A DNA stretch of 64,000 bases from Candidatus Kryptobacter tengchongensis (GTDB lineage: Bacteria > Bacteroidota > Ignavibacteria > Kryptoniales > Kryptoniaceae). Numbering within the stretch: position 1 is the first letter of the stretch; each line of letters starts with the position of its first letter. A program made the translations under genes and the position numbers. The stretch is taken from the NCBI GenBank assembly GCA_001485605.1, contig FAON01000014.1, forward strand, positions 1-64,000, given 5' to 3'. Of the stretch, positions 1 through 56,598 are shown piece by piece. The notes below the pieces were generated by a model. That model was not told where the DNA came from. It did not search any database and saw only the letters and a program-made list of their open reading frames with translations.

Positions 1-3000
1 GGTTAAATACAGCAAGTATTAGTTATAATTCAGCGACAAGAATAGCAACAATTGATCCGATAAATGATTTTAAGCAAGGAGAAATTGTGACTGTGACACT
101 TACCAGAGGGATAAAGAATATAACAGGTGATTCAATGGTAAGACCATATATTTGGAGTTTTACAGTAGGAGTAAAAGATGGCTCTGGAAATTTTAAACTT
201 GTAGGTACTATGAGTAGTTTCTCCGAGGGCTCTATACACTTAAGTGATATGGATAATGATGGTGACTTAGATTTATTTCACTCTGAATTTTGGAATCGAG
301 GAAGATATTATGTCAATGATGGTAGCGGTTCTTTTAATTCTTATATTCAATTCCCTGTCCCGAATAATGCGATTATACTTTTTATTAACTCTGGAGATAT
401 TGATAACGATGGGGATTTAGATATTATTGGACTTACTGGATATTCTATTCTTTTTGTTATGGAAAAAGATAGCAACAATTTTAATTTGATATGGCAATAT
501 GATTACCGTGATAGACCTTACTCCAATTATCCACATATTGCTTTAGGAGATATAAATGGGGATGGTTATTTGGATATCGTTGCAACCCTTCAAGATGGTG
601 TAGGTGTAATTTTTAAAAATAACAAAAATAAAACTTTTAGTAACATTTTGACCTGGGGCGCTGGATCAGGTGTTGCTATTGGTGATTTAGATAGGGATGG
701 GGATTTAGACATTGTTTCTAGTAATGGATTAATCTTGAAAAATAATGGAGATGAATCGTTTGAATTTTTAAATAGTGGGGGTTCAGGTAGCGGAATATAC
801 CTTAATGATTTTGATGGTGATGGAGATTTAGATATTGCTTTTAGAGGCGGAGATATTCTTAAAAACAATGGAAATGGAATTTTTACCCCAACGGGACAAA
901 CGTTAGCAAGCGGTGATTGGGGAAAGATATCAGGTGGAGATGTGGATATGGATGGGGACATTGATTTAATAGTTGCGAGTGGTGGGCAAACATATATATA
1001 CCTAAATAGAGGGGATGGGTCATTTAACCTTTTTGGATCTTTAAACACAGGTTCGTCTACACTGCATGTACTATTGGGTGATATTGATGAGGACGGCGAT
1101 CTGGATTTAATCACCAAAAATAGGTCATCTGAAAGCAGTAATGTTCTAATCTTTATAAACAGAAGTATGTTTCCTAATATAAAACTATCTACATCAACAC
1201 TTAATTTTGGGGATGTATCGCTTGGGAATAGTAAGAGTTTATATTTAAAAATATATAACGAAAGTGGCAAAGAAACATTAACTGTTAACTTAAGTAATAC
1301 AACAACGTTATTTAATATTTCTAACGATAGTTTATTTATTCCACCTATAAATAATGATAGTGTCCTTGTTACATTTAATCCTGTATCTTATGGTCGTTTT
1401 GAGGATTCACTTGTTATAACGAGCAATGATCCGAATAAGCCGAGGTTGGTGGTCAGGCTGGTTGGGTATAGTGGGAATTATGTAAGTGGTGTAATAACTG
1501 CAAATACGATTTGGACGAGAGATAATTCACCGTATATAATTTCGGGTAATTTAGGGATAGATGCTGGGGTGAAGTTAAGGATAGAGCGAGGTGTTAGGGT
1601 TGTTTTCAAGGGGAGATATAATTTCAATGTAGATGGTATACTTGAGGTGGAGGGTGTAGAGGGGGATAGCGTTGTGTTTACGAGTTTATACCCGGATACG
1701 ATGAGATATCCTGGGATAAGGTTCAGGAGTGGTGGTAGGGGGAGTTTTAGATATGTAAGGGTTGAGGGTTCTGATATGGGTATATGGTGTGTTGGTGCAT
1801 CGGGTTTAGAGGTTTACAATAGCATTTTTGAGGGGAATGGATATGGGGTTGTTGATACAAGTGTTAATGGTGTTATAATTCGTGATAGCAAATTTTTGAG
1901 GAATGGGGAGGGTGTGAGGTTTTCTTCAAGTTCAAATGTTTCTGTTGATGGGTGTGTATTTAGTGGTAATAGTGTAGGTGTTAGGGCAAATGGTGGTAGT
2001 GTTGAGGTGAGGGGTAACAGGTTTAATGGGGATGGGAATGCGATTGTTGTTGATGGCTGGACATATGGGACATTGAGAGTGATAGGGAATGAGATTTTAG
2101 GTTGTGTTAATGGTGTGAATTATTCTTGGGGATATGGTTATTTAGAGGTTTTTGACAATGTTATAGTTGGCAATAGTGGGTGGGGTTTATATTTGGTTGG
2201 TGTTAATGGTGGAGTTGCGAGGGGTAATTTGATTATGGAGAATGGTTCTGGGGTTTACATTTGGGATGGTGGAGGTGTTAATTTTGAGAGGAACAAGGTT
2301 TTGGTTAATAGAGGTGTTGGGGTTCAGACGAACAGGGGGATATTCATAAGGGAGAATTTGATATTTGGTAATTTGGGTGATGGGATAAACACATCGGGTA
2401 ATAATCAGATTTTGTATAATGATATTTATGGTAATGCTGGTGATGGGATAGAGGCATCTGGTAAGCCTGTTGTAAATTACAACAACATATATGGGAATAT
2501 TGGTTATAATTTGAGGGCGACGCTTCAGGCGAGTGATTCAATAGATGCGAAGAATAACTGGTGGGGGAGTGTGGATAGGGATGAGATAAGTTCAAAGATA
2601 TATGATTTTTATGATGATGGTGTGACGGTCAGGGTTAGGTTTGAGCCGTATTTGATGGAGAAGGTGGGCATGTTTGCGGTTACAGGATTTAGGGGTGAGA
2701 GCAAGGCTGGTGGGGTTATAAGGTTAAGTTGGGACAGGCATCCATTTGCGTCAAGGTATGTTTTGTATAAGGGTGAGGCTGGGGGATTGGATAGCACAAC
2801 TATATGGGTTGAGCTGGATTCAAGCAAAGTTAGTTATGAGTTTTCTATTTTTGATGGTTTGTATAGTTTTGGGATAAGGGCTGTTTCAAGTGATGGGAGG
2901 TTTTCACCTTTGGTTGTAATAGATAATGTTTTGTCAGATTCAAGGGCACCTGTTTTGGTTTATGCTTTTGGGGTTCAGGGGGATAGTGTTATAAGTGTTA

Positions 3001-6000
3001 AGTTCAATGAGGCTGTTGATTTTTCAAGTGTTGCTGATACATCAAATTGGGGATTGAACCTTGGTTTAAAAGTTGGGAGAGTTTCAACGAATAGGGGATA
3101 TATTGTTGAGTATTACAATGGTGAAAATTTTGGGACATTTGTTGCAAGGGATACGATTAGAGATGCATCTGGAATTAACTTTAACTGGGGTTGGGGTTCA
3201 CCGAGAGCTGGAGTCAATAGTGATTATTTTTCAGTCAGGATAAGGGGTTATGTTTATATGCCTTTAAGTGGGGTTTACAAATTTTCATTTGTTGTTTCTG
3301 GTTATGATGGGTATAGGATAATTATTGGTTCTGATACATTGAGGAATAAATTTTGGTATGGTTGGGATACGGTTAGGACTGTTACGAGGAGTTTTGCATC
3401 TGGTGTTTATCCTTTGATGTTTGAGTTTCAGGAGTATTATGATACAGCTTCTGTTTCTTTAAGTTGGACAAGACCTGATGGTGTAAGTGAGTTAGTTCCG
3501 ATATACATTAGACCTAATGTAGACAGTTACAATTTGCATCTTTCTTCTGGGCAGCGTTTGCCTGTTTCGGATAGTTTGATAGTTTTGAGATGTAGGGGTA
3601 TAAGTGATTTGGTTGGGAATGTATCAGGGGAGCAGGTGATAGAGTTTTATCCTGATGATGGTAATAGTAATCCGAGCATAACATTGTCTGGGATAGTTGG
3701 TGAGGTGAGTGGTGATGTGAGGATAGATTATGTTATAAGTGATATTGAGGGTGATAGTGTAAGGTTGAGGTGTGAGTATTCGGTTGATGGGGATAGTTGG
3801 TTTGTTGCGAGTGTTGTTGGGGATACTGTTAATATAGGCAGGGATAGGTATAGGGGTTATTTGATATGGAGGAGCAAGTTGGATTTGGCGGATTATTCTG
3901 GTGAGGTAAGTTTTAGAGTTACGCCAAGGGATAATGACCCGCATAATTGGGGAGCATTTGATCTGGTAAGATTTAAAATTGATAACTATCATAGACACAG
4001 GATAGTTTGGAGTTTAACAGATACATTGAGCGAATATTCTGATACCATCAAAGTTAATTATACTTTGATTGATACTACGAAAGATATTTTGAAACTCAAG
4101 GGATATTACCGCAAAGATGCAGAGGTAAATTGGAAGGTAGCAACTTTAATTGGAGATACAGCGAATCTTGATACAACGAAATATACAGGTATAATCAGGT
4201 GGTTAAGCAGGAGGGATCTTGATGGATACGATGGATATGTATGGTTGAAGTTTGAAGTAAATGATGGGTGGGTGAGTAATTCTGGAGATTCGCTAAGGTT
4301 TAAGCTTGATAATAATTATCCTCCACTGGCTATACTTGCAAGGGTGACATCTGAACAAAGCGATAGTGTGAGACTTAGATACACTTTGAGTGATGTTGAG
4401 GGTGATTCATTAAAGATAGTGGTTGAATACTCAGAAGATGGAAATACTTGGAGGGGTGCGAAGATAGTTGGAGATACAATTATAAAACCTTCAAATTATA
4501 GTGGGGAAATTGTTTGGTTATCAAGGGAAGATTTGCCAGGCAGGGATTTATATGTTTATGTCAGGCTGACGCCGATGGACAATGATGTTGGGGAGGCTGA
4601 TACTATAAGGTTTAAACTTGACAATAACTATCCTCCTGTAGTTAAAATTGATTCTATATATGGTGTTAAGAGAAGAACGGGTGCATACAAGGATACGCTT
4701 ACCTTTTTCTTCTCTATTTTAGATAGCGAGGGAGATACAGTGAGGTTGAGGTTTTTCTTCAAAAATGCTGATAGCGTGGATGCCCCATGGAGTTATGTTA
4801 CCGTGTCTTCGGGGGATACTGGGGATGTAATGCCTGGTAGATATACTTTCAAATGGGCAACCAATGTTGATCTTCCAGGTTCAGCTGGAAATTATTACTT
4901 TAAAATCATCCCATCTGATCTTGACCTGGGTTTGTCGGATTCCATGTTAGTTCAAATTGATAACCTTGGTGTTCCGCATATTGCATTGCTGGATAGTTTT
5001 GCTGGGGAATATACGGGTGATATTACATTTAATTATAGAATAGTGGATGAGGAGGGTGACACGATAAAGTTAGTTGCTGAATTTTCGCAGGATGATGGTA
5101 GAAGTTGGAGAAAAGCGACAGTTGTCGGTGATACACTTATCTCAGATAGCACAAAATATGTTGGCTCGTTGATATGGAAATCAAATATGGATTTATCAGG
5201 ATTTGATGGTTTTGTGAGATTTAGGATTACTCCTTTTGATGCCAATAGAGGGATCAGAAGCGAGGTAATTTTCCATCTTGATAACAATGAGGTTCCAGTT
5301 ATAAGATATATTGAAACATCAGTGGTTGAGGTATCGGGGGAGTTTGAGATTAAATTTGTTCCTTTTGATCAGGAGAGAGATTCATTGAGGTTTAAGTTTG
5401 AGTATTCGGTTGGTGATACAATGAGCTGGAGGAATGCAACGACCAGGATGGGATCAAGGTACGGGGATACGCTTGGGGTTATATGGTTATCTAATTATGA
5501 TCTGGCAAATCAGGATGTTTGGGTTTACTTTAAAATAACGCCGTTTGACAGGGATACGGGTAAATATGCTATATCTGGAAAATTTAATGTTGATAATCAA
5601 ACAGGTCCGATTATTCTTTCAACTTCTCCCGTTAATATCAGTTTTTACAATGATACAATTAAGATAAAATTTGATAGAAAGGTTTATGGAATTGGAAGCG
5701 GTGTGAAAATTTATGGAAGTTTGACTGGCGTGCATCAATTTAACAGTTTATCTTTTGATACCGTTTTTTATCTTATCCCATCTCCTCATTTCGCCTCTGC
5801 TGAGACGGTGACGGTGAAGATAATTGCAGATAGCATTAAAGATTCAAATGGAAATACTTTTGATGGGGATAAAGATGGTGATCCAGAGGGTTCGCCTGTT
5901 GATGATATAACTTTAACATTTGTTTCAACGATTCCAGGGGATTACAACTTTGATAAAAAAGTTAACATTGAAGATCTTGCTTTGTTCAGGGATGTATGGA

Positions 6001-6959
6001 TAAATAATTACACAAGTAAAGAAATTGGACCTGCGACTGGGAAGCCACCTCAGATGATTGTTCAGCCTGATGGTAAGGTTGATTTTGAAGATTTGATGAT
6101 TTTTGTCATGAATTGGAACTGGACAGTTAAAACAGGAGGGTTCAAGTTGGCAAGTAAAATTTTGTTTGGGGATATGGATTCAAGCAAATTGATGGGCATA
6201 AGCAAGGCTTATAAGGAGCAGTTATTGATGTTTGATAAGGTTGAAACATCTAATAAATATAGTCGCATTGGTGGATTGAACAATAGGTATATCAGTTATG
6301 ATGTTAAGTTCAATTTAACAGATGATTTTGCGGATACGATTTATGCAGGTGAATTTGTTCTCAGATATGATCCTGAAATTTTACAATTTGTTGGGATAAA
6401 AGATAATGATGTTTTTGGTAAACTTAACGATGGCAAGACAATCTTTTTGAGTTATGTTGATTCGGTAAACGGGTTGGTTATAATTAACTTTGCTAATTTT
6501 GGGAATTTAGGCATGTTAAGAAATGATGTTGTCGCAAGAATTGATTTTAAGGTGCTCAAGGAGTTGGAAGGTGAGGGTGCGATTGCTTGGGAATTGTTTG
6601 GAGTTTCTGGAAATGTATATGAGTTTTATGATAAGGTGGAACTTAACACTATCCCTGAGATTCCTAAAGAATTTGCTTTGTTGCAGAATTATCCAAATCC
6701 ATTTAATCCGAATACGGTTATAAGGTATCATGTGCCCAGGTATAGTCGTGTGGTTATAAAAATTTACGATATCACGGGAAGAGAAGTCACAGTCCTTGTT
6801 GATGATTACTTTAAGCCTGGTTATTATGAGGTTGTTTGGGACAGCAGAAGAAGGGATGGGGTAGAGGTTTCAAGTGGTGTTTATTTTTATGTTATGGAAG
6901 CAGTTGAAGATACTCGTAATATTTTCAGAAGTGTAAGGAAAATGGTTGTGGTAAAATAA
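1..6959 (+). CDS. Giant multidomain T9SS-secreted protein (5' end outside window)
   Basis: The reading frame is open from base 3, so this is the C-terminal part of a longer gene; GTG at 87 is an internal codon. Domains in order, by window position: end of an SbsA-type Ig domain (3-165); seven VCBS/FG-GAP calcium-loop repeats of the DxDxDGDLD type (about 225-1130); a choice-of-anchor/ASPM-like Ig domain (1165-1470); a right-handed parallel beta-helix ending in NNWWGS (1480-2610); an Fn3-like domain (2680-2930); an Ig domain split by a PA14 domain (2935-3650); six Ig-like repeats (3660-5605); another SbsA-type Ig domain (5610-5935); a dockerin-like pair (5940-6125); a cohesin-like fold (6290-6640); and a T9SS sorting domain (6665-6956) with NYPNPFNPN. 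The role is probably surface adhesion or polysaccharide binding. No catalytic motif was recognised. Codon use shifts strongly between about 1440 and 3970. Confidence 0.85.
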   Translation, partial: LNTASISYNSATRIATIDPINDFKQGEIVTVTLTRGIKNITGDSMVRPYIWSFTVGVKDGSGNFKLVGTMSSFSEGSIHLSDMDNDGDLDLFHSEFWNRGRYYVNDGSGSFNSYIQFPVPNNAIILFINSGDIDNDGDLDIIGLTGYSILFVMEKDSNNFNLIWQYDYRDRPYSNYPHIALGDINGDGYLDIVATLQDGVGVIFKNNKNKTFSNILTWGAGSGVAIGDLDRDGDLDIVSSNGLILKNNGDESFEFLNSGGSGSGIYLNDFDGDGDLDIAFRGGDILKNNGNGIFTPTGQTLASGDWGKISGGDVDMDGDIDLIVASGGQTYIYLNRGDGSFNLFGSLNTGSSTLHVLLGDIDEDGDLDLITKNRSSESSNVLIFINRSMFPNIKLSTSTLNFGDVSLGNSKSLYLKIYNESGKETLTVNLSNTTTLFNISNDSLFIPPINNDSVLVTFNPVSYGRFEDSLVITSNDPNKPRLVVRLVGYSGNYVSGVITANTIWTRDNSPYIISGNLGIDAGVKLRIERGVRVVFKGRYNFNVDGILEVEGVEGDSVVFTSLYPDTMRYPGIRFRSGGRGSFRYVRVEGSDMGIWCVGASGLEVYNSIFEGNGYGVVDTSVNGVIIRDSKFLRNGEGVRFSSSSNVSVDGCVFSGNSVGVRANGGSVEVRGNRFNGDGNAIVVDGWTYGTLRVIGNEILGCVNGVNYSWGYGYLEVFDNVIVGNSGWGLYLVGVNGGVARGNLIMENGSGVYIWDGGGVNFERNKVLVNRGVGVQTNRGIFIRENLIFGNLGDGINTSGNNQILYNDIYGNAGDGIEASGKPVVNYNNIYGNIGYNLRATLQASDSIDAKNNWWGSVDRDEISSKIYDFYDDGVTVRVRFEPYLMEKVGMFAVTGFRGESKAGGVIRLSWDRHPFASRYVLYKGEAGGLDSTTIWVELDSSKVSYEFSIFDGLYSFGIRAVSSDGRFSPLVVIDNVLSDSRAPVLVYAFGVQGDSVISVKFNEAVDFSSVADTSNWGLNLGLKVGRVSTNRGYIVEYYNGENFGTFVARDTIRDASGINFNWGWGSPRAGVNSDYFSVRIRGYVYMPLSGVYKFSFVVSGYDGYRIIIGSDTLRNKFWYGWDTVRTVTRSFASGVYPLMFEFQEYYDTASVSLSWTRPDGVSELVPIYIRPNVDSYNLHLSSGQRLPVSDSLIVLRCRGISDLVGNVSGEQVIEFYPDDGNSNPSITLSGIVGEVSGDVRIDYVISDIEGDSVRLRCEYSVDGDSWFVASVVGDTVNIGRDRYRGYLIWRSKLDLADYSGEVSFRVTPRDNDPHNWGAFDLVRFKIDNYHRHRIVWSLTDTLSEYSDTIKVNYTLIDTTKDILKLKGYYRKDAEVNWKVATLIGDTANLDTTKYTGIIRWLSRRDLDGYDGYVWLKFEVNDGWVSNSGDSLRFKLDNNYPPLAILARVTSEQSDSVRLRYTLSDVEGDSLKIVVEYSEDGNTWRGAKIVGDTIIKPSNYSGEIVWLSREDLPGRDLYVYVRLTPMDNDVGEADTIRFKLDNNYPPVVKIDSIYGVKRRTGAYKDTLTFFFSILDSEGDTVRLRFFFKNADSVDAPWSYVTVSSGDTGDVMPGRYTFKWATNVDLPGSAGNYYFKIIPSDLDLGLSDSMLVQIDNLGVPHIALLDSFAGEYTGDITFNYRIVDEEGDTIKLVAEFSQDDGRSWRKATVVGDTLISDSTKYVGSLIWKSNMDLSGFDGFVRFRITPFDANRGIRSEVIFHLDNNEVPVIRYIETSVVEVSGEFEIKFVPFDQERDSLRFKFEYSVGDTMSWRNATTRMGSRYGDTLGVIWLSNYDLANQDVWVYFKITPFDRDTGKYAISGKFNVDNQTGPIILSTSPVNISFYNDTIKIKFDRKVYGIGSGVKIYGSLTGVHQFNSLSFDTVFYLIPSPHFASAETVTVKIIADSIKDSNGNTFDGDKDGDPEGSPVDDITLTFVSTIPGDYNFDKKVNIEDLALFRDVWINNYTSKEIGPATGKPPQMIVQPDGKVDFEDLMIFVMNWNWTVKTGGFKLASKILFGDMDSSKLMGISKAYKEQLLMFDKVETSNKYSRIGGLNNRYISYDVKFNLTDDFADTIYAGEFVLRYDPEILQFVGIKDNDVFGKLNDGKTIFLSYVDSVNGLVIINFANFGNLGMLRNDVVARIDFKVLKELEGEGAIAWELFGVSGNVYEFYDKVELNTIPEIPKEFALLQNYPNPFNPNTVIRYHVPRYSRVVIKIYDITGREVTVLVDDYFKPGYYEVVWDSRRRDGVEVSSGVYFYVMEAVEDTRNIFRSVRKMVVVK
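3660..5605 (+). repeat. Six tandem Ig-like protein repeats inside the giant secreted protein
   Basis: Six diverged copies of about 105 residues each carry the same landmarks: EGDS(V/I)(R/K)L, a strand ending in W(R/K)xA, xVGDT, a W(L/R)S(R/K)xDL turn, a (R/K)(I/V)TP(R/F)D strand, and a closing (F/L)(K/H)(L/I/V)DN. The copies differ enough that they are ancient duplications. The likely role is a spacer that holds the binding domains away from the cell surface. Confidence 0.7.
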
Positions 6960-6987: not shown

Positions 6988-7752
6988 AAACTCACCCCCT
7001 TTAAATTCCCCCTCTCTAATTTTAGAGAGGGGGGTGGGAAGTGAGTTTATCAACTCACCCCCTTTAAGTTCCCCCTCTTTATATTATAGAGAGGGGGATA
7101 GGGGTAAGTCAATTTATTAACACATCCCTTTTTAGTTTCCCCTCTTTAATTTTAGAGAGGGGGATGGGGAGTGGGTTTCTTAACTCACCCCCTTTGATTC
7201 CCCCTCTCTAATTTTTTAGAGAGGGGGATAGGGGAGGTGAGTCAATTTCTTAACTCAGCCCCTTTGATTCAGCCTCTCTATTTAACAGAGAGAGTTAGGG
7301 GTGAGTCAATCTTCACACTCCCCTCTCTATTCGTAGAGAGGGGTTGGGGAGTGGGTTTTTTAACTCACCCCCCTTTTAATTCCCCCTCTCTAAATTTTAG
7401 AGAGGGGGACGGGGGTGAGTCAATTTTTCATCCCGTCATTACTTGCTTGCGATGACAGTTGTCATTATGAGAGGCGAAGCCCCGAAGTAATCTTTGGTTA
7501 GATTGCCACGCTTCGTTTGCAATGACAGTTTGTTCTGAATGAGATTGCTTTGTTTGACTCACCCACTTTAATTCCCTTTCTCTAAATTTTAGAGAGGGGG
7601 ACGGGGGTGAGTCAATTTTTCGTTCCTCTTTATTTTCCTTCTCTAACATTTTTGAGAAGGTGTTGGGAGGCGAGTCAATTTCTTAACTCACCCCCTTTAA
7701 TTCCCACTCTCTATTTATAGAGAGGGGGATAGGAGGTGAGTCGTTTTTTAAC
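6988..7752. repeat. Tandem array of about ten palindromic G/C-rich hairpin repeats
   Basis: Units start near 6990, 7052, 7119, 7182, 7252, 7314, 7362, 7556, 7621 and 7685 and are 47-70 bp long. Each is an imperfect palindrome. The outer arms are (A/G)ACTCACCCCC and GGGGGTGAGTC, the inner arms are CCCCCTCTCTAA and TTAGAGAGGGGG, and a T-rich tail of the AATTTCTT type often follows. Some units have lost part of an arm. The array starts 29 bp after the stop codon of the giant secreted protein. Related copies follow two other T9SS cargo genes (19287 and 20836). The transcript of each unit could fold into a long stem, so a role in transcription termination or mRNA 3' protection is possible but unproven. 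Short open frames across this array are not genes. Confidence 0.85.
7435..7550. repeat. GTCATT-type palindromic element inserted in the hairpin array
   Basis: The core at 7461-7526 is an inverted repeat. It begins GTCATTATGAGAGGCGAAGC and ends with the complementary arm GCTTCGTTTGCAATGAC. A shorter palindrome with GTCATT...GATGAC ends lies just before it (7435-7456), and a partial arm (GAATGAGATTGCTTTG) follows at 7536-7551. The type resembles the widespread 'GTCATTGCGAG...GCAATGAC' intergenic palindromes of many bacteria. It is unrelated in sequence to the surrounding G-rich hairpins and separates unit 7 from unit 8. Confidence 0.65.
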
Positions 7753-16497: not shown

Positions 16498-16534
16498 AAA
16501 TTCGCAAAAACAAAAATAATTGGGAGGTAGTATC

Positions 16535-19285
16535 ATGTGGAGGTCAATTAAAGTATTTGGGCTTTCTCTAATTCTTACCCTGATAATTTCATCTTTAGCC
16601 CTTGCTCAGTTAAAACTTTCCCCCGTATGGGCTAAAAAAGCTGGGGAAGTTTCCTGGCTTAAAACTGATCACACAACGCGCGGGATAGCTTATAATCCTG
16701 TTAATGACCATGTTTATGTCGTTTCAAGAAGCGCTGGATTAAATGTTATAATTCTTAACGCTGCAACTGGTGATTCACTTGGAAAGTTAGATGTAACAGG
16801 TATCAGTGGTGGTTTTTTTGTTTTAAATATGATTGATGTTTCAAGTGATGGTGTTATTTATGCATGTAACTTAGTTACATCTGCAAATGCTGAATTTAAG
16901 GTATATCGGTGGACTGATGAAAATTCTGCTCCGACAGTTGCGGTTTCATGGATAAGCGATGGTAGATATGGTGACGCATTTGCTGTTGATGGTTCTGGGA
17001 CAAATACAAAAATTTATGTAAGTGGTAGTGGAAACGACAAAGTAGCTGTTTTTGGGACAACCGATGGGGTAAACTTCACATTTGAAAAGTCAATCACTGT
17101 TGGCGCAGGGCGTGCACGACTTGGAATTGATATTGACGAAAACGGAAACATTTGGGGTAATGGCGCTGGGACAATTGCTGGAGTCTGGGATCAAAATGGA
17201 ACTCTTCTTGGTGAGATACAGGGGACATCGGGAACAGCAACCGCCGACCTGGCTTTAACAAGCTCCGGGAGGAAGTTATTCTTCACATTAGGTATGGGTG
17301 CTGGGGTATCGTCTCCATATTTTAAGTTCTATGTCTACGATGTGACAGAAGGTCCGGCAAAGGCGAGACTGATCGCTGTAACTGATAGCGTTACTGGAAA
17401 TTCAAATGCAAATGGAACTGGAAGAGCAGTATATGACCCACGACGCCATAGGATGATTGCTCTTGCGACAAACAATTATCTTGCCTCATTCCAATTGACA
17501 TATCAAGTTACCTTTAATGTAAACACCGCAACATCTCCGAAATTTTTAGTTGATACCTCGCTTGTGGAGGTCCGCGGTTCACATCCATTGCTTGGACCCT
17601 GGGGTAGTGCACCGACTAATAGAATGACAAATGTTGGCGGTGATTATTGGAAATTATCTATTGATTTTCCTGACACAATGGTTGGGAAGGAAGTTGAATA
17701 TAAATTCTATGCTGAAGATTGGGAAGATGGTTCTAATTATTCATTGACCATACCTGCGTCAGATACGACATTGCCTTTAGTTTTCTTCCGTAAGCAAGGT
17801 TTCGGACCAAATCCGCCATATACGCCAACTGATTCAATTGATGTGTGGTTCAGAGTTTATGTTTATAACATCCCCGAATTTGATCCAGCTCAGCATGTTG
17901 TTGGGGTTCGCGGTGCTCAATTGCCAAACCACAATGATTTTGGTGATATAAGCTGGAGTAGGACATTTGTTTTAAATCCAGAGCCAGCAAATGATAAAGT
18001 TTGGTCTGGAAGGTTAAGATTTCCGTCACCATCTGGAATTGCTTATAAATTTGTGATTGCCTCCAGGGATAACCCAGATAATATTATAAAGTGGGAATCA
18101 GATCCAAATAGAGAGGTCACAGTAAATAAAGATACAACGCTTAGATGGACGACATTTGACAGGAAAGTTATAGCGCCAGCGAAACCAGTTGCTCTTTACT
18201 TTAGTGTTGACATGAGCGTAATGCAAGGTGCAGGAATTTTCTATCCAGATAGCGGTGATGTTGTGTTAGTTCGTGGTAGTTTCAATGGTTGGGGTGAGGT
18301 TGATTCACTTAGCCCATCCATACTTGAACCTGGTATATGGGAAAAATATATAACAATTACAGCTGCGCCCGGGGACTTCATTGAATTTAAGTACTACATT
18401 AAAACTGGAACGAATAATCAAGCAAGGGTTCCAAATGGTGGATGGGAGACAGGGGTAAATAGAAGATATACATTTACTGATGCTGATACGCAGGAGGTTG
18501 TAAGAGATTACTTTAACAAGCTTGGTCCGGAAGGTTATGTGCAGAAGCCCGAAGGGGTTGAGGTATGGTTCTACTGTGATATGAGAGGGGTAACCGACAA
18601 AAATGGTGACCCAATTACAAGGGTTGATTCCTTATTCATTGCTGGAAGCACGCCTCCGTTATTCTGGATTTGGGATGAACCTACAAGAGATCGTTCAAAG
18701 TTGAGAATGTATGATGATGGCAGATATCCTGATAAAATTGCTGGAGATACGATTTACGCTGTTGCCTTGACATTCCCGAAATGGAGCATAAAGGGACCGA
18801 TTCAATTTAAATTTGCAGTGAATGGAATAGTTGATAATGAGGCAGGTTTCCAAGAGGACCATCTCCTGTTCCTTGATGATATGCCTGGTCAACCTGGGTC
18901 AAAGGCGATAAATGAACTTGAGGTTGTTAAGTTTGGAAGACAGCGTGGCTTGGGTGCGTTCAAAGATACAGTTAGAATCGTGAATAAGTTCACAAGTGTC
19001 AAGCAAACCAATGAAATACCGCTTACATATGCACTTTATCAAAATTATCCAAATCCATTTAACCCAACTACGACAATTAAATATAGCATACCGAATACAG
19101 AGCGGGTTACATTGAAGATTTATAATATCCTTGGTCAAGAGGTTGCAACCCTTGTTGATGAGGAACAGAAACCAGGCGTTTATGAATTGAAGTTTGATGC
19201 TTCAAATCTTGCAAGCGGTGTTTACTTCTATAGGTTAAAAGCAGGTGGGTTTGTTGATGTTAAGAAGATGGTTTTGGTTAGGTAA
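16535..19285 (+). CDS. T9SS-secreted propeller protein with starch-binding-like modules
   Basis: The start is taken at ATG 16535, because GGGAGG (16522-16527) lies 7 bp upstream and a good signal peptide begins there (MWRSIKVFGLSLILTLIISS...); a TTG at 16520 in the same frame has no such site. The N-terminal third (to about residue 320) is a beta-propeller-like domain (RGIAYNPVNDHVYVVSR). Four beta-sandwich modules resembling CBM20/CBM48 starch-binding domains follow at about 322-430, 433-545, 557-665 and 675-780, with VRGSHPLLGPWG and VRGSFNGWGE as landmarks. The C-terminal T9SS sorting domain (from about residue 832) carries NYPNPFNPTTTIKYSIP. The likely role is a cell-surface starch-binding protein. 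No catalytic residues were recognised. A hairpin repeat follows the stop codon directly. Confidence 0.8.
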   Translation: MWRSIKVFGLSLILTLIISSLALAQLKLSPVWAKKAGEVSWLKTDHTTRGIAYNPVNDHVYVVSRSAGLNVIILNAATGDSLGKLDVTGISGGFFVLNMIDVSSDGVIYACNLVTSANAEFKVYRWTDENSAPTVAVSWISDGRYGDAFAVDGSGTNTKIYVSGSGNDKVAVFGTTDGVNFTFEKSITVGAGRARLGIDIDENGNIWGNGAGTIAGVWDQNGTLLGEIQGTSGTATADLALTSSGRKLFFTLGMGAGVSSPYFKFYVYDVTEGPAKARLIAVTDSVTGNSNANGTGRAVYDPRRHRMIALATNNYLASFQLTYQVTFNVNTATSPKFLVDTSLVEVRGSHPLLGPWGSAPTNRMTNVGGDYWKLSIDFPDTMVGKEVEYKFYAEDWEDGSNYSLTIPASDTTLPLVFFRKQGFGPNPPYTPTDSIDVWFRVYVYNIPEFDPAQHVVGVRGAQLPNHNDFGDISWSRTFVLNPEPANDKVWSGRLRFPSPSGIAYKFVIASRDNPDNIIKWESDPNREVTVNKDTTLRWTTFDRKVIAPAKPVALYFSVDMSVMQGAGIFYPDSGDVVLVRGSFNGWGEVDSLSPSILEPGIWEKYITITAAPGDFIEFKYYIKTGTNNQARVPNGGWETGVNRRYTFTDADTQEVVRDYFNKLGPEGYVQKPEGVEVWFYCDMRGVTDKNGDPITRVDSLFIAGSTPPLFWIWDEPTRDRSKLRMYDDGRYPDKIAGDTIYAVALTFPKWSIKGPIQFKFAVNGIVDNEAGFQEDHLLFLDDMPGQPGSKAINELEVVKFGRQRGLGAFKDTVRIVNKFTSVKQTNEIPLTYALYQNYPNPFNPTTTIKYSIPNTERVTLKIYNILGQEVATLVDEEQKPGVYELKFDASNLASGVYFYRLKAGGFVDVKKMVLVR

Positions 19286-19286
19286 A

Positions 19287-19393
19287 TGACTCACCCTCTA
19301 TCCCCCTCTCTACTTATGTAGGGAGGGGGAACTTAACTCGCCCCCTATCCCCTCTCTAATTTAGTAAAGAGGGGGTAGGTAGGGTGAGTAATA
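19287..19393. repeat. Hairpin repeats after a T9SS cargo gene (two units)
   Basis: Two units of the 6988-7752 family: the first starts TGACTCACCCTCTATCCCCC with the complementary arm GTAGGGAGGGGGA, and the second starts CTCGCCCCCTATCCCC and ends GTAGGGTGAGT. The first unit begins 2 bp after the stop codon. Confidence 0.8.
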
Positions 19394-19451
19394 AAAATAG
19401 CAATTTAAATTCATTCAATTTAAGTGAAACAAAATAAAATGGAGGCGAGCT

Positions 19452-20834
19452 ATGAAGAGAATATTTTTAACTATTGGAATAATTGTGTTTGCCTTTTCTT
19501 TTGCAATGGCTCAAATAACAATTGATGGAATTATTCAAGAGGCGCAATATGCTTTAATAGCAACAAAACAAAATAATAACCAAGGATTTGGTCCAAATAT
19601 TGATATTCAAAAAATTTACTATTATCCTGATGTTAGTGAGTCAAAACTATATATAGGTGTTGTTTGTAAATTAAACACAGCATCAAATGATGGCATAGGT
19701 ATTTGGTTAAATATTAAAGGTTCAGGCTCTAATACTGGAAGATCAGCTGGGCAACCTTTAGGGATTGGTAGTGGAGGTTATCATTATATTGGTGCTAATA
19801 ATAGTAACTATAAAGCTGATTTTGAAGTTGATTTTATGTTCGCTTTTAATCCTGGTAATAGTACTACAACGGTGTATTTTGATGCTGCAAAGTGGATTTC
19901 CAATACGTCTTATGTTCATTATCAAGGTTTCTGTGATCAATCTGGGACCTCTGCAACGAATTTTGGTGAAGATGGCACTGTTTTTACTCAAAATAGTGTA
20001 ACATTTGCTTTTAATAATTCTGGTTCAACAAATACGGGACTTGAAATTTCCATACCGTTTTCCCAACTTGGTCCAAATGTTACGGCTTCAAATACATTTG
20101 AGATTTTTGCGTTTGTTGTAAGTAATACTGCTTACTTTTCTAATGTAACAGTTCCAGGAAATGTTAGTGTAGGTAATCTTGGGTTTGATCCAGATTTTGG
20201 TAGCATTTCAGGAGGACCTTACCATACAGCTGAATATTCTCTTCCTGTCCAATCTGTATTAGTTTCGGCTATATCTGGTGATTCAAAGGTTACGCTCGTT
20301 TGGGAGACAAGAAGCGAATTTGATAATGCTGGATTTGAAATTTTCCGAAAGGCTCAGGATGAGACCGAGCATAAACTTATATCAAGTTATACAACAAACG
20401 ATGCTCTCAAGGGTCTTGGAACAAGTCCATATGGGAAGAGATATACTTATGTTGATTATAATGTTCGTAATGGAGTTGAATATGAATACAAAATTTACGC
20501 CGTAAGTTTCAGCGGTCAAAGACAAGAGATCGGTGTTGTATTTGCTAAACCAGGGTCGGAGCTTCCTGATAAGTTTGTTCTTTACCAAAATTATCCTAAC
20601 CCATTTAATCCAGGGACAGAAATAAAATTTGATTTGCCTGAATCTGGGTATGTTAAACTTGAAGTCTTCAATGCAATTGGTGAAAGAGTTTCAATTCTTT
20701 ATGATGGGTATATGGAGGCTGGATATAGTAAGACTATAAGATGGAATGCAAGTGGATTGCCAAGCGGGGTTTACTTTTACAAGTTAACAGCAGGCAAATT
20801 CGTTGATGTTAAGAAGATGGTTTTGGTTAGGTAA
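19452..20834 (+). CDS. T9SS-secreted protein with a DOMON/CBM9-like domain
   Basis: A 460-residue protein with a clear signal peptide (MKRIFLTIGIIVFAFSFAMAQ) and GGAGG at 19441-19445, 6 bp before ATG. Residues about 22-260 resemble the DOMON/family-9 carbohydrate-binding fold: ITIDGIIQEAQYALIA at the start, then strands such as LYIGVVCKL and a GLEISIPFSQLG strand. A short Fn3-like segment follows (SKVTLVWETRSEFDNAGFEI, about 275-370). The T9SS sorting domain (about 373-460) has NYPNPFNPGTEIKFDLP and GVYFYKLTAGKFVDVKKM. It probably binds sugar polymer at the cell surface. The last 33 bases of the gene and about 46 bases beyond are almost identical to the end of the previous T9SS gene. Confidence 0.75.
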   Translation: MKRIFLTIGIIVFAFSFAMAQITIDGIIQEAQYALIATKQNNNQGFGPNIDIQKIYYYPDVSESKLYIGVVCKLNTASNDGIGIWLNIKGSGSNTGRSAGQPLGIGSGGYHYIGANNSNYKADFEVDFMFAFNPGNSTTTVYFDAAKWISNTSYVHYQGFCDQSGTSATNFGEDGTVFTQNSVTFAFNNSGSTNTGLEISIPFSQLGPNVTASNTFEIFAFVVSNTAYFSNVTVPGNVSVGNLGFDPDFGSISGGPYHTAEYSLPVQSVLVSAISGDSKVTLVWETRSEFDNAGFEIFRKAQDETEHKLISSYTTNDALKGLGTSPYGKRYTYVDYNVRNGVEYEYKIYAVSFSGQRQEIGVVFAKPGSELPDKFVLYQNYPNPFNPGTEIKFDLPESGYVKLEVFNAIGERVSILYDGYMEAGYSKTIRWNASGLPSGVYFYKLTAGKFVDVKKMVLVR

Positions 20835-20835
20835 A

Positions 20836-20998
20836 TGACTCACCCTCTATCCCCCTCTCTACTGATGTAGGGAGGGGGAATTTGACTCACCCCCTATCCC
20901 CCTCTCTAATTTAGAGAGGGGGATGGGAGTGGGTGGGTTAATATATTTTTAGTTTCCTCCTCTGCTGATGCGGAGATGGAGGGAAAGAATGGCGAGTA
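20836..20998. repeat. Hairpin repeats after a second T9SS cargo gene
   Basis: Two good units of the same family (GACTCACCCTCTATCCCCC...GTAGGGAGGGGGAA, then GACTCACCCCCTATCCCCC...AGAGGGGGATGGG). A degraded third follows (TTTCCTCCTCTGCTGATGCGGAGATGGAGGGAAA), itself a near-perfect short palindrome. Confidence 0.8.
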
Positions 20999-56507: not shown

Positions 56508-56598
56508 GGAGAGGTGGCCGAGTGGATGAAGGCGCACGCCTGGAGAGCGTGTAGTCCGCCAAAAAGCGGGCTCGTGGGTTCGAATCCCACCCTCTCCG
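56508..56598 (+). tRNA. tRNA-Ser (anticodon GGA)
   Basis: A 91-nt class II tRNA. The acceptor stem is GGAGAGG/CCTCTCC with discriminator G. The anticodon stem CACGC/GCGTG encloses loop CTGGAGA (anticodon GGA, reading UCC and UCU). A long variable arm (stem CCGCC...GCGGG region) and a TGGGTTCGAATCCCA T-arm complete it. The 3' CCA is not encoded (GCT follows). Confidence 0.95.

What the first reader, a model, noticed from the sequence alone, without database searches (positions are those of the whole stretch)
6988..7752. Ten-unit palindromic hairpin array after a T9SS cargo gene
The units have nested complementary arms (ACTCACCCCC/GGGGGTGAGT outside, CCCCCTCTCT/AGAGAGGGGG inside) and have kept pairing despite sequence changes: TCTTTATATTATAGAGA and TCTCTATTCGTAGAGA both still fold. 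The same family follows two more T9SS cargo genes. This is more than expected for a neutral tandem repeat and may be a 3'-end mRNA structure, a terminator or a recombination site.
Basis: partly seen in the sequence, partly recalled or inferred. Interest (0 to 1): 0.6.

Follow-up and report, generated by a model that had tools for sequence, protein, structure and literature searches.

The report
Palindromic repeats tied to DUF559 endonuclease
The ten hairpins are one array of a genome-wide repeat family, and such repeats flank genes for a little-studied DNA-cutting enzyme (DUF559) in many bacterial phyla, changing sequence together with the enzyme, which suggests a REP-like mobile repeat system run by an unexpected kind of enzyme.

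Summary
In detail: ten tandem units of about 64 bp lie at 6988-7747, each a nested pyrimidine/purine palindrome. It is one of about 24 clusters (roughly 110 units) in this 2.68 Mb genome of a Candidatus Kryptonia relative. The mRNA-3'-end/terminator reading is not supported: terminator-like sites show no excess, arrays lie in divergent, codirectional and convergent gaps, and the six T9SS-linked arrays reduce to about three because T9SS gene tails were copied with the first unit attached.

The important part lies outside the window. One array contains a DUF559 (PF04480) endonuclease gene. DUF559 genes collected by protein similarity alone, across phyla, have pyrimidine/purine palindromes within 150 bp in 71 of 77 cases (both sides in 42), against 10 of 154 control genes (both sides in 0). 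Palindrome sequence follows the DUF559 protein tree even among paralogues inside one host genus (Mantel r 0.63, p 1e-4). Five congeners lack the whole DUF559-plus-units cassette. DUF559 folds like Vsr and the homing endonuclease I-Bth0305I.

Best explanation: a REP-like dispersed repeat whose partner enzyme is a Vsr/EDxHD-fold endonuclease rather than a RAYT. Association and co-evolution are shown; cleavage and propagation are inferred.

The parts
6988..7052 (+). palindromic unit 1 (outer arms ACTCACCCCC/..GTGAGT, inner CCCCCTCTCTAATTTTAGAGAGGGGG)
   Evidence: DNA fold z -4.6
7051..7115 (+). palindromic unit 2
   Evidence: fold z -2.45
7118..7182 (+). palindromic unit 3
7181..7248 (+). palindromic unit 4
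   Evidence: fold z -5.6
7251..7312 (+). palindromic unit 5 (degenerate)
   Evidence: fold z -3.0
7310..7360 (+). palindromic unit 6 (lacks the 5' outer arm)
   Evidence: fold z -4.5
7361..7426 (+). palindromic unit 7 (best match to the model in the window, 81.7 bits)
   Evidence: fold z -5.9
7425..7540 (.). foreign insert: CGTCATT..GCAATGACAG-type (CGTC-tagged-like) palindromic repeat, a different family
   Evidence: sequence; direct repeat TTGCGATGACAGTT; naming by comparison with PMC3733652
7555..7618 (+). palindromic unit 8
7616..7681 (+). palindromic unit 9 (degenerate)
7684..7747 (+). palindromic unit 10
   Evidence: fold z -4.9
87..6959 (+). gene before the array: 2290-aa protein with a weak T9SS type A sorting tail (TIGR04183, 20.4 bits, cut-off 23)
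19284..19395 (.). two units directly after the stop codon of T9SS gene 16520-19285; in G001 and G002 this same site carries the DUF559 gene with flanking units
20833..20940 (.). two units directly after the stop codon of T9SS gene 19452-20834
16520..19285 (+). T9SS cargo gene (Por_Secre_tail, 49.8 bits)
19452..20834 (+). T9SS cargo gene (Por_Secre_tail, 35.6 bits); its tail plus first unit is 88.8% identical over 169 nt to that of the neighbouring gene

Best explanation
The array belongs to a REP-like family of dispersed, untagged pyrimidine/purine palindromes. Its partner enzyme is a small Vsr/EDxHD-fold endonuclease of family DUF559 (PF04480), encoded in this genome inside one such array (C7:123,697-124,092 approximately, not in the window). 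The unit-DUF559-unit cassette would be the autonomous form, and solo units and tandem arrays such as 6988-7747 the non-autonomous form. Likely mechanism: DUF559 recognises its cognate palindrome, as a dimer on duplex or on an extruded or single-stranded hairpin, and cuts or nicks there. Repair then copies units into new intergenic sites, often with adjoining homologous sequence such as T9SS gene tails, and unequal repair lengthens arrays. Shown: physical association, co-evolution of enzyme and palindrome, empty sites, changed location of the cassette among congeners, endonuclease fold with invariant catalytic-type residues. Inferred: binding, cutting, and repair-driven propagation.
For: DUF559 gene inside an array, units on both sides. 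DUF559 loci fetched by protein similarity only, in many phyla: 71/77 with a palindrome within 150 bp and 42/77 on both sides, against 10/154 and 0/154 for other ORFs of the same loci (p 7e-41, 4e-25). Vsr genes 0/29, Y1 transposases 2/24. Palindrome type on the protein tree: 23 changes against 53.5 shuffled. Within one host genus: Mantel r 0.625, p 1e-4; orthologues in different genomes share palindromes (0.68), paralogues in one genome do not (0.21). The DUF559 cassette is missing from the same site in G001, G003, G004, G005, G006; in G001 and G002 DUF559 sits instead after the T9SS gene orthologous to window 16520-19285. Core repeats and DUF559 co-occur in 15/15 against 10/26 relatives (p 5e-5). 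Fold: 3hrl Z 14.6, I-Bth0305I Z 11.9, Vsr Z 9.2; invariant D67, E78, D80, H84, D91.
Against: No cutting or binding has been measured. No clean target-site duplication could be read at 75-83% flank identity. Some genomes have many core repeats but no DUF559 (G118, 20 matches), which needs loss or another enzyme. In the wider Pfam set, 15/62 DUF559 genes had no palindrome within 150 bp. The only published functional work found on a DUF559 protein (Caulobacter VsrA, PMC12907096) proposes mismatch repair. Association would also arise if DUF559 only homes into palindromes that something else spreads.
Confidence: 0.66

Rival explanations
1. The palindromes are spread by something else (replication slippage, an unknown or lost transposase), and DUF559 is a homing-like gene that recognises and inserts into them: the palindrome is its landing site, not its product.
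For: Explains flanking and co-evolution equally well. Explains genomes with repeats but no DUF559 (G118). DUF559 is structurally closest to a homing endonuclease and Vsr, which only cut.
Against: In the Kryptonia genus the whole unit-DUF559-unit block is absent from the empty site, with no palindrome there in five congeners. Repeat presence tracks DUF559 presence within the genus: G000-G002 have both, G003-G005 neither, G006 a broken DUF559 and no exact core.
Confidence: 0.2
2. 3'-end mRNA structure or intrinsic terminator for T9SS cargo genes.
For: Six of twelve gene 3' ends within 60 bp of clusters are T9SS genes; hairpins are stable; in two cases the unit abuts or supplies the stop codon (TGA-CTCACC).
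Against: Terminator-like sites are no more frequent than chance (1 vs 2.4). Arrays of up to ten units; clusters also lie between divergent genes and after metabolic genes. About 54 of 60 T9SS-tail hits have no array nearby. T9SS tail and first unit were copied together.
Confidence: 0.06
3. Ordinary GTAG/CGTC-type REP elements mobilised by the genome's RAYT (Y1 transposase).
For: One REP-associated tyrosine transposase gene exists in the genome (C14:122,637; NF047646, 84.2 bits).
Against: That RAYT is flanked by its own, different GTAG-type palindromes (GCAGGCTAAAGCCTGC, GCACCCTTTAGGGTGC) and by no CCCCTCTCT unit. Units have no GTAG/CGTC tag. Congeners G001 and G002 have the units but no Y1_Tnp hit. 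Y1 genes in relatives are not flanked by these palindromes (2/24).
Confidence: 0.03
4. DUF559 is a Vsr-like mismatch-repair enzyme of the host, and its place among palindromes is a by-product, for example because palindromic DNA needs such repair.
For: Fold similarity to Vsr (Z 9.2); a DUF559 protein of Caulobacter is proposed to act in very-short-patch repair (PMC12907096); unit arms vary mainly by C to T, leaving T-G pairs.
Against: True Vsr genes are not next to such palindromes (0/29). Clade-specific matching of palindrome and protein is not expected. The gene is patchy and changes place within one genus.
Confidence: 0.05

Closest known systems
REP elements with RAYTs (TnpA-REP; Nunvar 2010 PMC2817692, Bertels and Rainey 2011 PMC3116915)
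   Same: Dozens of short dispersed intergenic palindromes per genome, arrays, gene for a nuclease flanked by the palindromes, enzyme and repeat co-evolve, patchy between close relatives.
   Different: Enzyme is a Vsr/EDxHD-fold DUF559 endonuclease, not a Y1 HUH transposase; no GTAG head; arms are pyrimidine/purine; units in the window array are direct tandem copies.
Untagged and CGTC-tagged palindromic repeats without a known enzyme (Di Nocera 2013, PMC3733652)
   Same: Untagged palindromic intergenic repeats; that paper asks whether such classes are related and linked to specific DNA-binding proteins.
   Different: No enzyme was assigned there; here DUF559 is. CGTC repeats have a different sequence; one sits as an insert inside this array.
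EDxHD homing endonucleases (I-Bth0305I, PDB 3r3p; review PMC3943268)
   Same: Catalytic-domain fold (Z 11.9) and the D, E-x-D, H, D residue pattern; nuclease gene that spreads its own locus.
   Different: I-Bth0305I is a long multi-domain enzyme on an intron target of nearly 60 bp; DUF559 here is 131 aa and sits among its own palindromes, with no intron or intein seen.
NGO0050 endonuclease-like protein (PDB 3hrl, Neisseria gonorrhoeae)
   Same: Nearest solved structure (Z 14.6, 38% identity); a DUF559 homologue in the same species likewise lies next to CCCCTCTCCC-type palindromic sequence.
   Different: No function is assigned to it in the structure record.

Membership tests
REP/RAYT system | Short palindromes in many dispersed intergenic copies | tested here: met
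   About 110 units in about 24 clusters
REP/RAYT system | Conserved unpaired GTAG (or CGTC) head | tested here: not met
   No such tag in the 72-unit consensus TAACTCACCCCC..GGGGGTGAGTCA
REP/RAYT system | Palindromes flank a Y1 (PF01797) transposase gene | tested here: not met
   The only RAYT is flanked by a different palindrome family; G001 and G002 have units but no Y1_Tnp hit
REP/RAYT system | Palindrome co-evolves with its enzyme | tested here: met
   Met with DUF559 instead of a RAYT
PF04480 DUF559 / Vsr-like endonuclease | Profile match above the curated cut-off | tested here: met
   100.5 bits, cut-off 20.6
PF04480 DUF559 / Vsr-like endonuclease | Vsr-type fold | tested here: met
   Model pLDDT 88.7; 3hrl Z 14.6, 3r3p Z 11.9, 1vsr Z 9.2
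PF04480 DUF559 / Vsr-like endonuclease | Metal-dependent DNA cleavage | not testable with these tools
   Only the invariance of D67, E78, D80, H84, D91 in 44 homologues
EDxHD homing endonuclease | Gene spreads by cutting the allele that lacks it | not testable with these tools
   Empty and filled sites exist; cutting was not tested
Intrinsic terminator | Stem-loop followed by a T run, above chance, at gene 3' ends | tested here: not met
   1 site against 2.4 in shuffles; clusters also between divergent genes
Known Rfam RNA | Match to an Rfam family | tested here: not met
   Only a tRNA at 56508 in the window

The most novel reading that the evidence does not exclude
Untagged pyrimidine/purine palindromes scattered through genomes of many phyla (Bacteroidota, Spirochaetota, Clostridia, Cyanobacteria, Deinococcota, Pseudomonadota, Patescibacteria) are one class of mobile repeat, each subfamily propagated by its own DUF559 endonuclease, a break-and-copy route without a transposase.
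Probability: 0.5. Interest if true: 0.88.

Novelty: new variant of a known kind. Interest (0 to 1): 0.77.

Why it matters
Untagged palindromic repeats occur in many bacterial genomes, but the enzyme behind them has been unknown; the 2013 survey of REP families names this as an open question (PMC3733652). DUF559 is a widespread family without an established function. This evidence ties the two together, gives a specific and testable partner for each palindrome subfamily, and would add a second, unrelated enzyme class to REP-like mobility. It also warns that hairpins after genes are easily misread as terminators.

Tried and rejected
RAYT as mobiliser: the own RAYT has other palindromes. Rfam: nothing but a tRNA. 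Terminator scan: below chance. Arm covariation in the own genome: none above shuffles; the loop-closing pair does covary. Synteny break at 6988-7747: the T9SS gene and the LacI block are joined only in this genome, but the region upstream of the LacI gene also differs between G002, G004 and G006 without palindromes there, so it is weak evidence for recombination. Target-site duplication at the empty site: AATTCC occurs at both junctions, but relatives are too diverged to decide. Phylum-wide co-occurrence with one fixed core is only moderate (28/33 against 143/263, p 5e-4), as expected if each DUF559 clade has its own palindrome. Literature searches for DUF559 with repeats, palindromes, transposition or mobile elements found no prior report; only open-licence papers are held.

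Full report
OBSERVATION. The window has ten tandem units at 6988-7747, each about 64 bp: outer arms ACTCACCCCC/GGGGGTGAGT, inner arms CCCCCTCTCT/AGAGAGGGGG, A/T-rich loop. They are far beyond chance and fold strongly as single strands. A different repeat, of the CGTC-tagged type, sits inside the array at about 7425-7540. Two smaller arrays follow the T9SS genes ending at 19285 and 20834.

SCALE AND CONTEXT. In the assembly (2.68 Mb, 16 contigs) exact cores occur 49 times; a covariance model finds about 110 units in 24 clusters in the stretches fetched. Clusters are intergenic: convergent, codirectional and at least three divergent gaps, next to ordinary metabolic genes. Units resemble their cluster mates more than expected (nearest neighbour in the same cluster 23 of 68, shuffled 4.4), so there is local amplification as well as dispersal.

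T9SS LINK. Of twelve gene 3' ends within 60 bp of a cluster, six are T9SS genes, against 60 T9SS-tail hits in an assumed 2,400 genes (p 1.6e-7). But T9SS tails and the first unit are homologous blocks: C11 and C4 88.7% over 663 nt, C11 and C7 90.8% over 347 nt, the two window genes 88.8% over 169 nt. Collapsed to three independent cases, p is 0.001. In two genes the unit's TGACTCACC abuts or provides the stop codon. The link is therefore real but is best read as copying of tail plus unit, not a shared 3'-end function.

COMPENSATION. Arm positions hardly vary; 95.4% pair, but double changes and covariation equal shuffled values. Changes are mostly C to T on the 5' arm. The loop-closing pair truly covaries (62/64 against 26.5). 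Between DUF559 clades the arms differ altogether and stay palindromic.

NOT THE RAYT. The genome has one REP-associated tyrosine transposase, flanked by its own GTAG-type palindromes. G001 and G002 have the units and no Y1 transposase hit.

THE DUF559 LINK. The array at C7:123,448-124,356 contains a 131-aa DUF559 gene (PF04480, 100.5 bits) with four units on each side. I then collected DUF559 loci by protein similarity alone: 72 named loci from genome contigs and loci from 41 relatives. Of 77 standalone genes with both flanks present, 71 have a pyrimidine/purine palindrome within 150 bp and 42 have one on both sides; 154 other ORFs of the same loci give 10 and 0. In the wider Pfam-based set of relatives 47 of 62 have at least one. 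The same test gives 0 of 29 for Vsr (PF03852) and 2 of 24 for Y1 transposases. Plasmid-collection hits in Neisseria gonorrhoeae (NGO0050-like), Pseudanabaena, Picosynechococcus, Azospirillum, Deinococcus and Sinorhizobium show such palindromes beside DUF559 too.

CO-EVOLUTION. Palindrome type needs 23 changes on the DUF559 tree against 53.5 for shuffled labels. Inside one host genus (g2, 24 genes) protein and palindrome distances correlate (Mantel r 0.625, permuted maximum 0.27, p 1e-4). Paralogues in one genome have unlike palindromes (similarity 0.21), orthologues over 50% identical in other genomes have like ones (0.68). Upstream and downstream palindromes of one locus match each other (0.59) better than those of other loci of the same genome (0.24). 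So the palindrome belongs to the enzyme, not to the host.

MOBILITY. The site of the DUF559 cassette in G000 is empty in G001, G003, G004, G005 and G006, with flanking genes intact; in the nearest three (G001, G003, G004) the aligned flanks meet with at most 16 bp between them. In G001 and G002 DUF559 with its units sits instead directly after the T9SS gene orthologous to window 16520-19285; G003 and G004 have one diverged palindrome there. In the genus, G000-G002 carry both repeat and gene, G003-G005 neither, G006 a broken gene.

ENZYME. The AlphaFold model (pLDDT 88.7) matches 3hrl (Z 14.6), the homing endonuclease I-Bth0305I (Z 11.9) and E. coli Vsr (Z 9.2). D67, E78, D80, H84 and D91 are invariant in 44 homologues, resembling the EDxHD class described in PMC3943268. 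The only functional study found on a DUF559 protein links it to DNA damage and presumed mismatch repair (PMC12907096).

CONCLUSION. The array is a product of a REP-like system whose enzyme is most likely a DUF559 endonuclease. Association, co-evolution and lineage-specific presence are shown. That the enzyme cuts the palindrome and that repair spreads it are inferred. The chief rival is that DUF559 only homes into palindromes spread by something else. No earlier report of the link turned up in the open-licence literature, where the enzyme behind untagged palindromes is named as an open question.

Noticed in passing
window 7425-7540: A CGTC-tagged-like palindromic repeat (CGTCATT...GCAATGACAG) is nested between units 7 and 8; this class is reported to lack any known transposase (PMC3733652).
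   Followed up: partly
L016:1357-1830 (G000 C14:122,637): A RAYT gene surrounded by many GTAG-type palindromes (GCAGGCTAAAGCCTGC and GCACCCTTTAGGGTGC), a second, independent REP system in the same genome.
   Followed up: partly
G000 contigs C1, C4, C5, C10, C13 ends: Several contigs begin or end near these arrays, so the assembly is probably broken by them and the unit count is a lower bound.
   Followed up: no
G118 (same class): Genome with 20 core matches but no DUF559 hit; either loss of the enzyme or another enzyme.
   Followed up: no
window 7083-7112, 7394-7423, 7586-7615, minus strand: Units carry TTGACT-18-TAwAAT promoter-like matches (10-11 of 12) on the minus strand; the total is not significantly above shuffles (5 vs 2.2, sd 1.8).
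   Followed up: no
G014, G025, G168, G138 and others: DUF559 domains also lie in open frames of 300 to over 1,000 codons, possibly fused to other domains; these were left out of the flank tests.
   Followed up: no
L213 and L212 (cyanobacterial plasmids): DUF559 on plasmids, with its stop codon inside the flanking palindrome (GCCCCCCTAG|CCCCCC), a likely route between hosts.
   Followed up: partly
L158 (G006 C5:2500-5700): A broken DUF559 gene (two fragments) beside a different palindrome subtype, CCTCTCCCCCTGCGGGAGAGG.
   Followed up: partly
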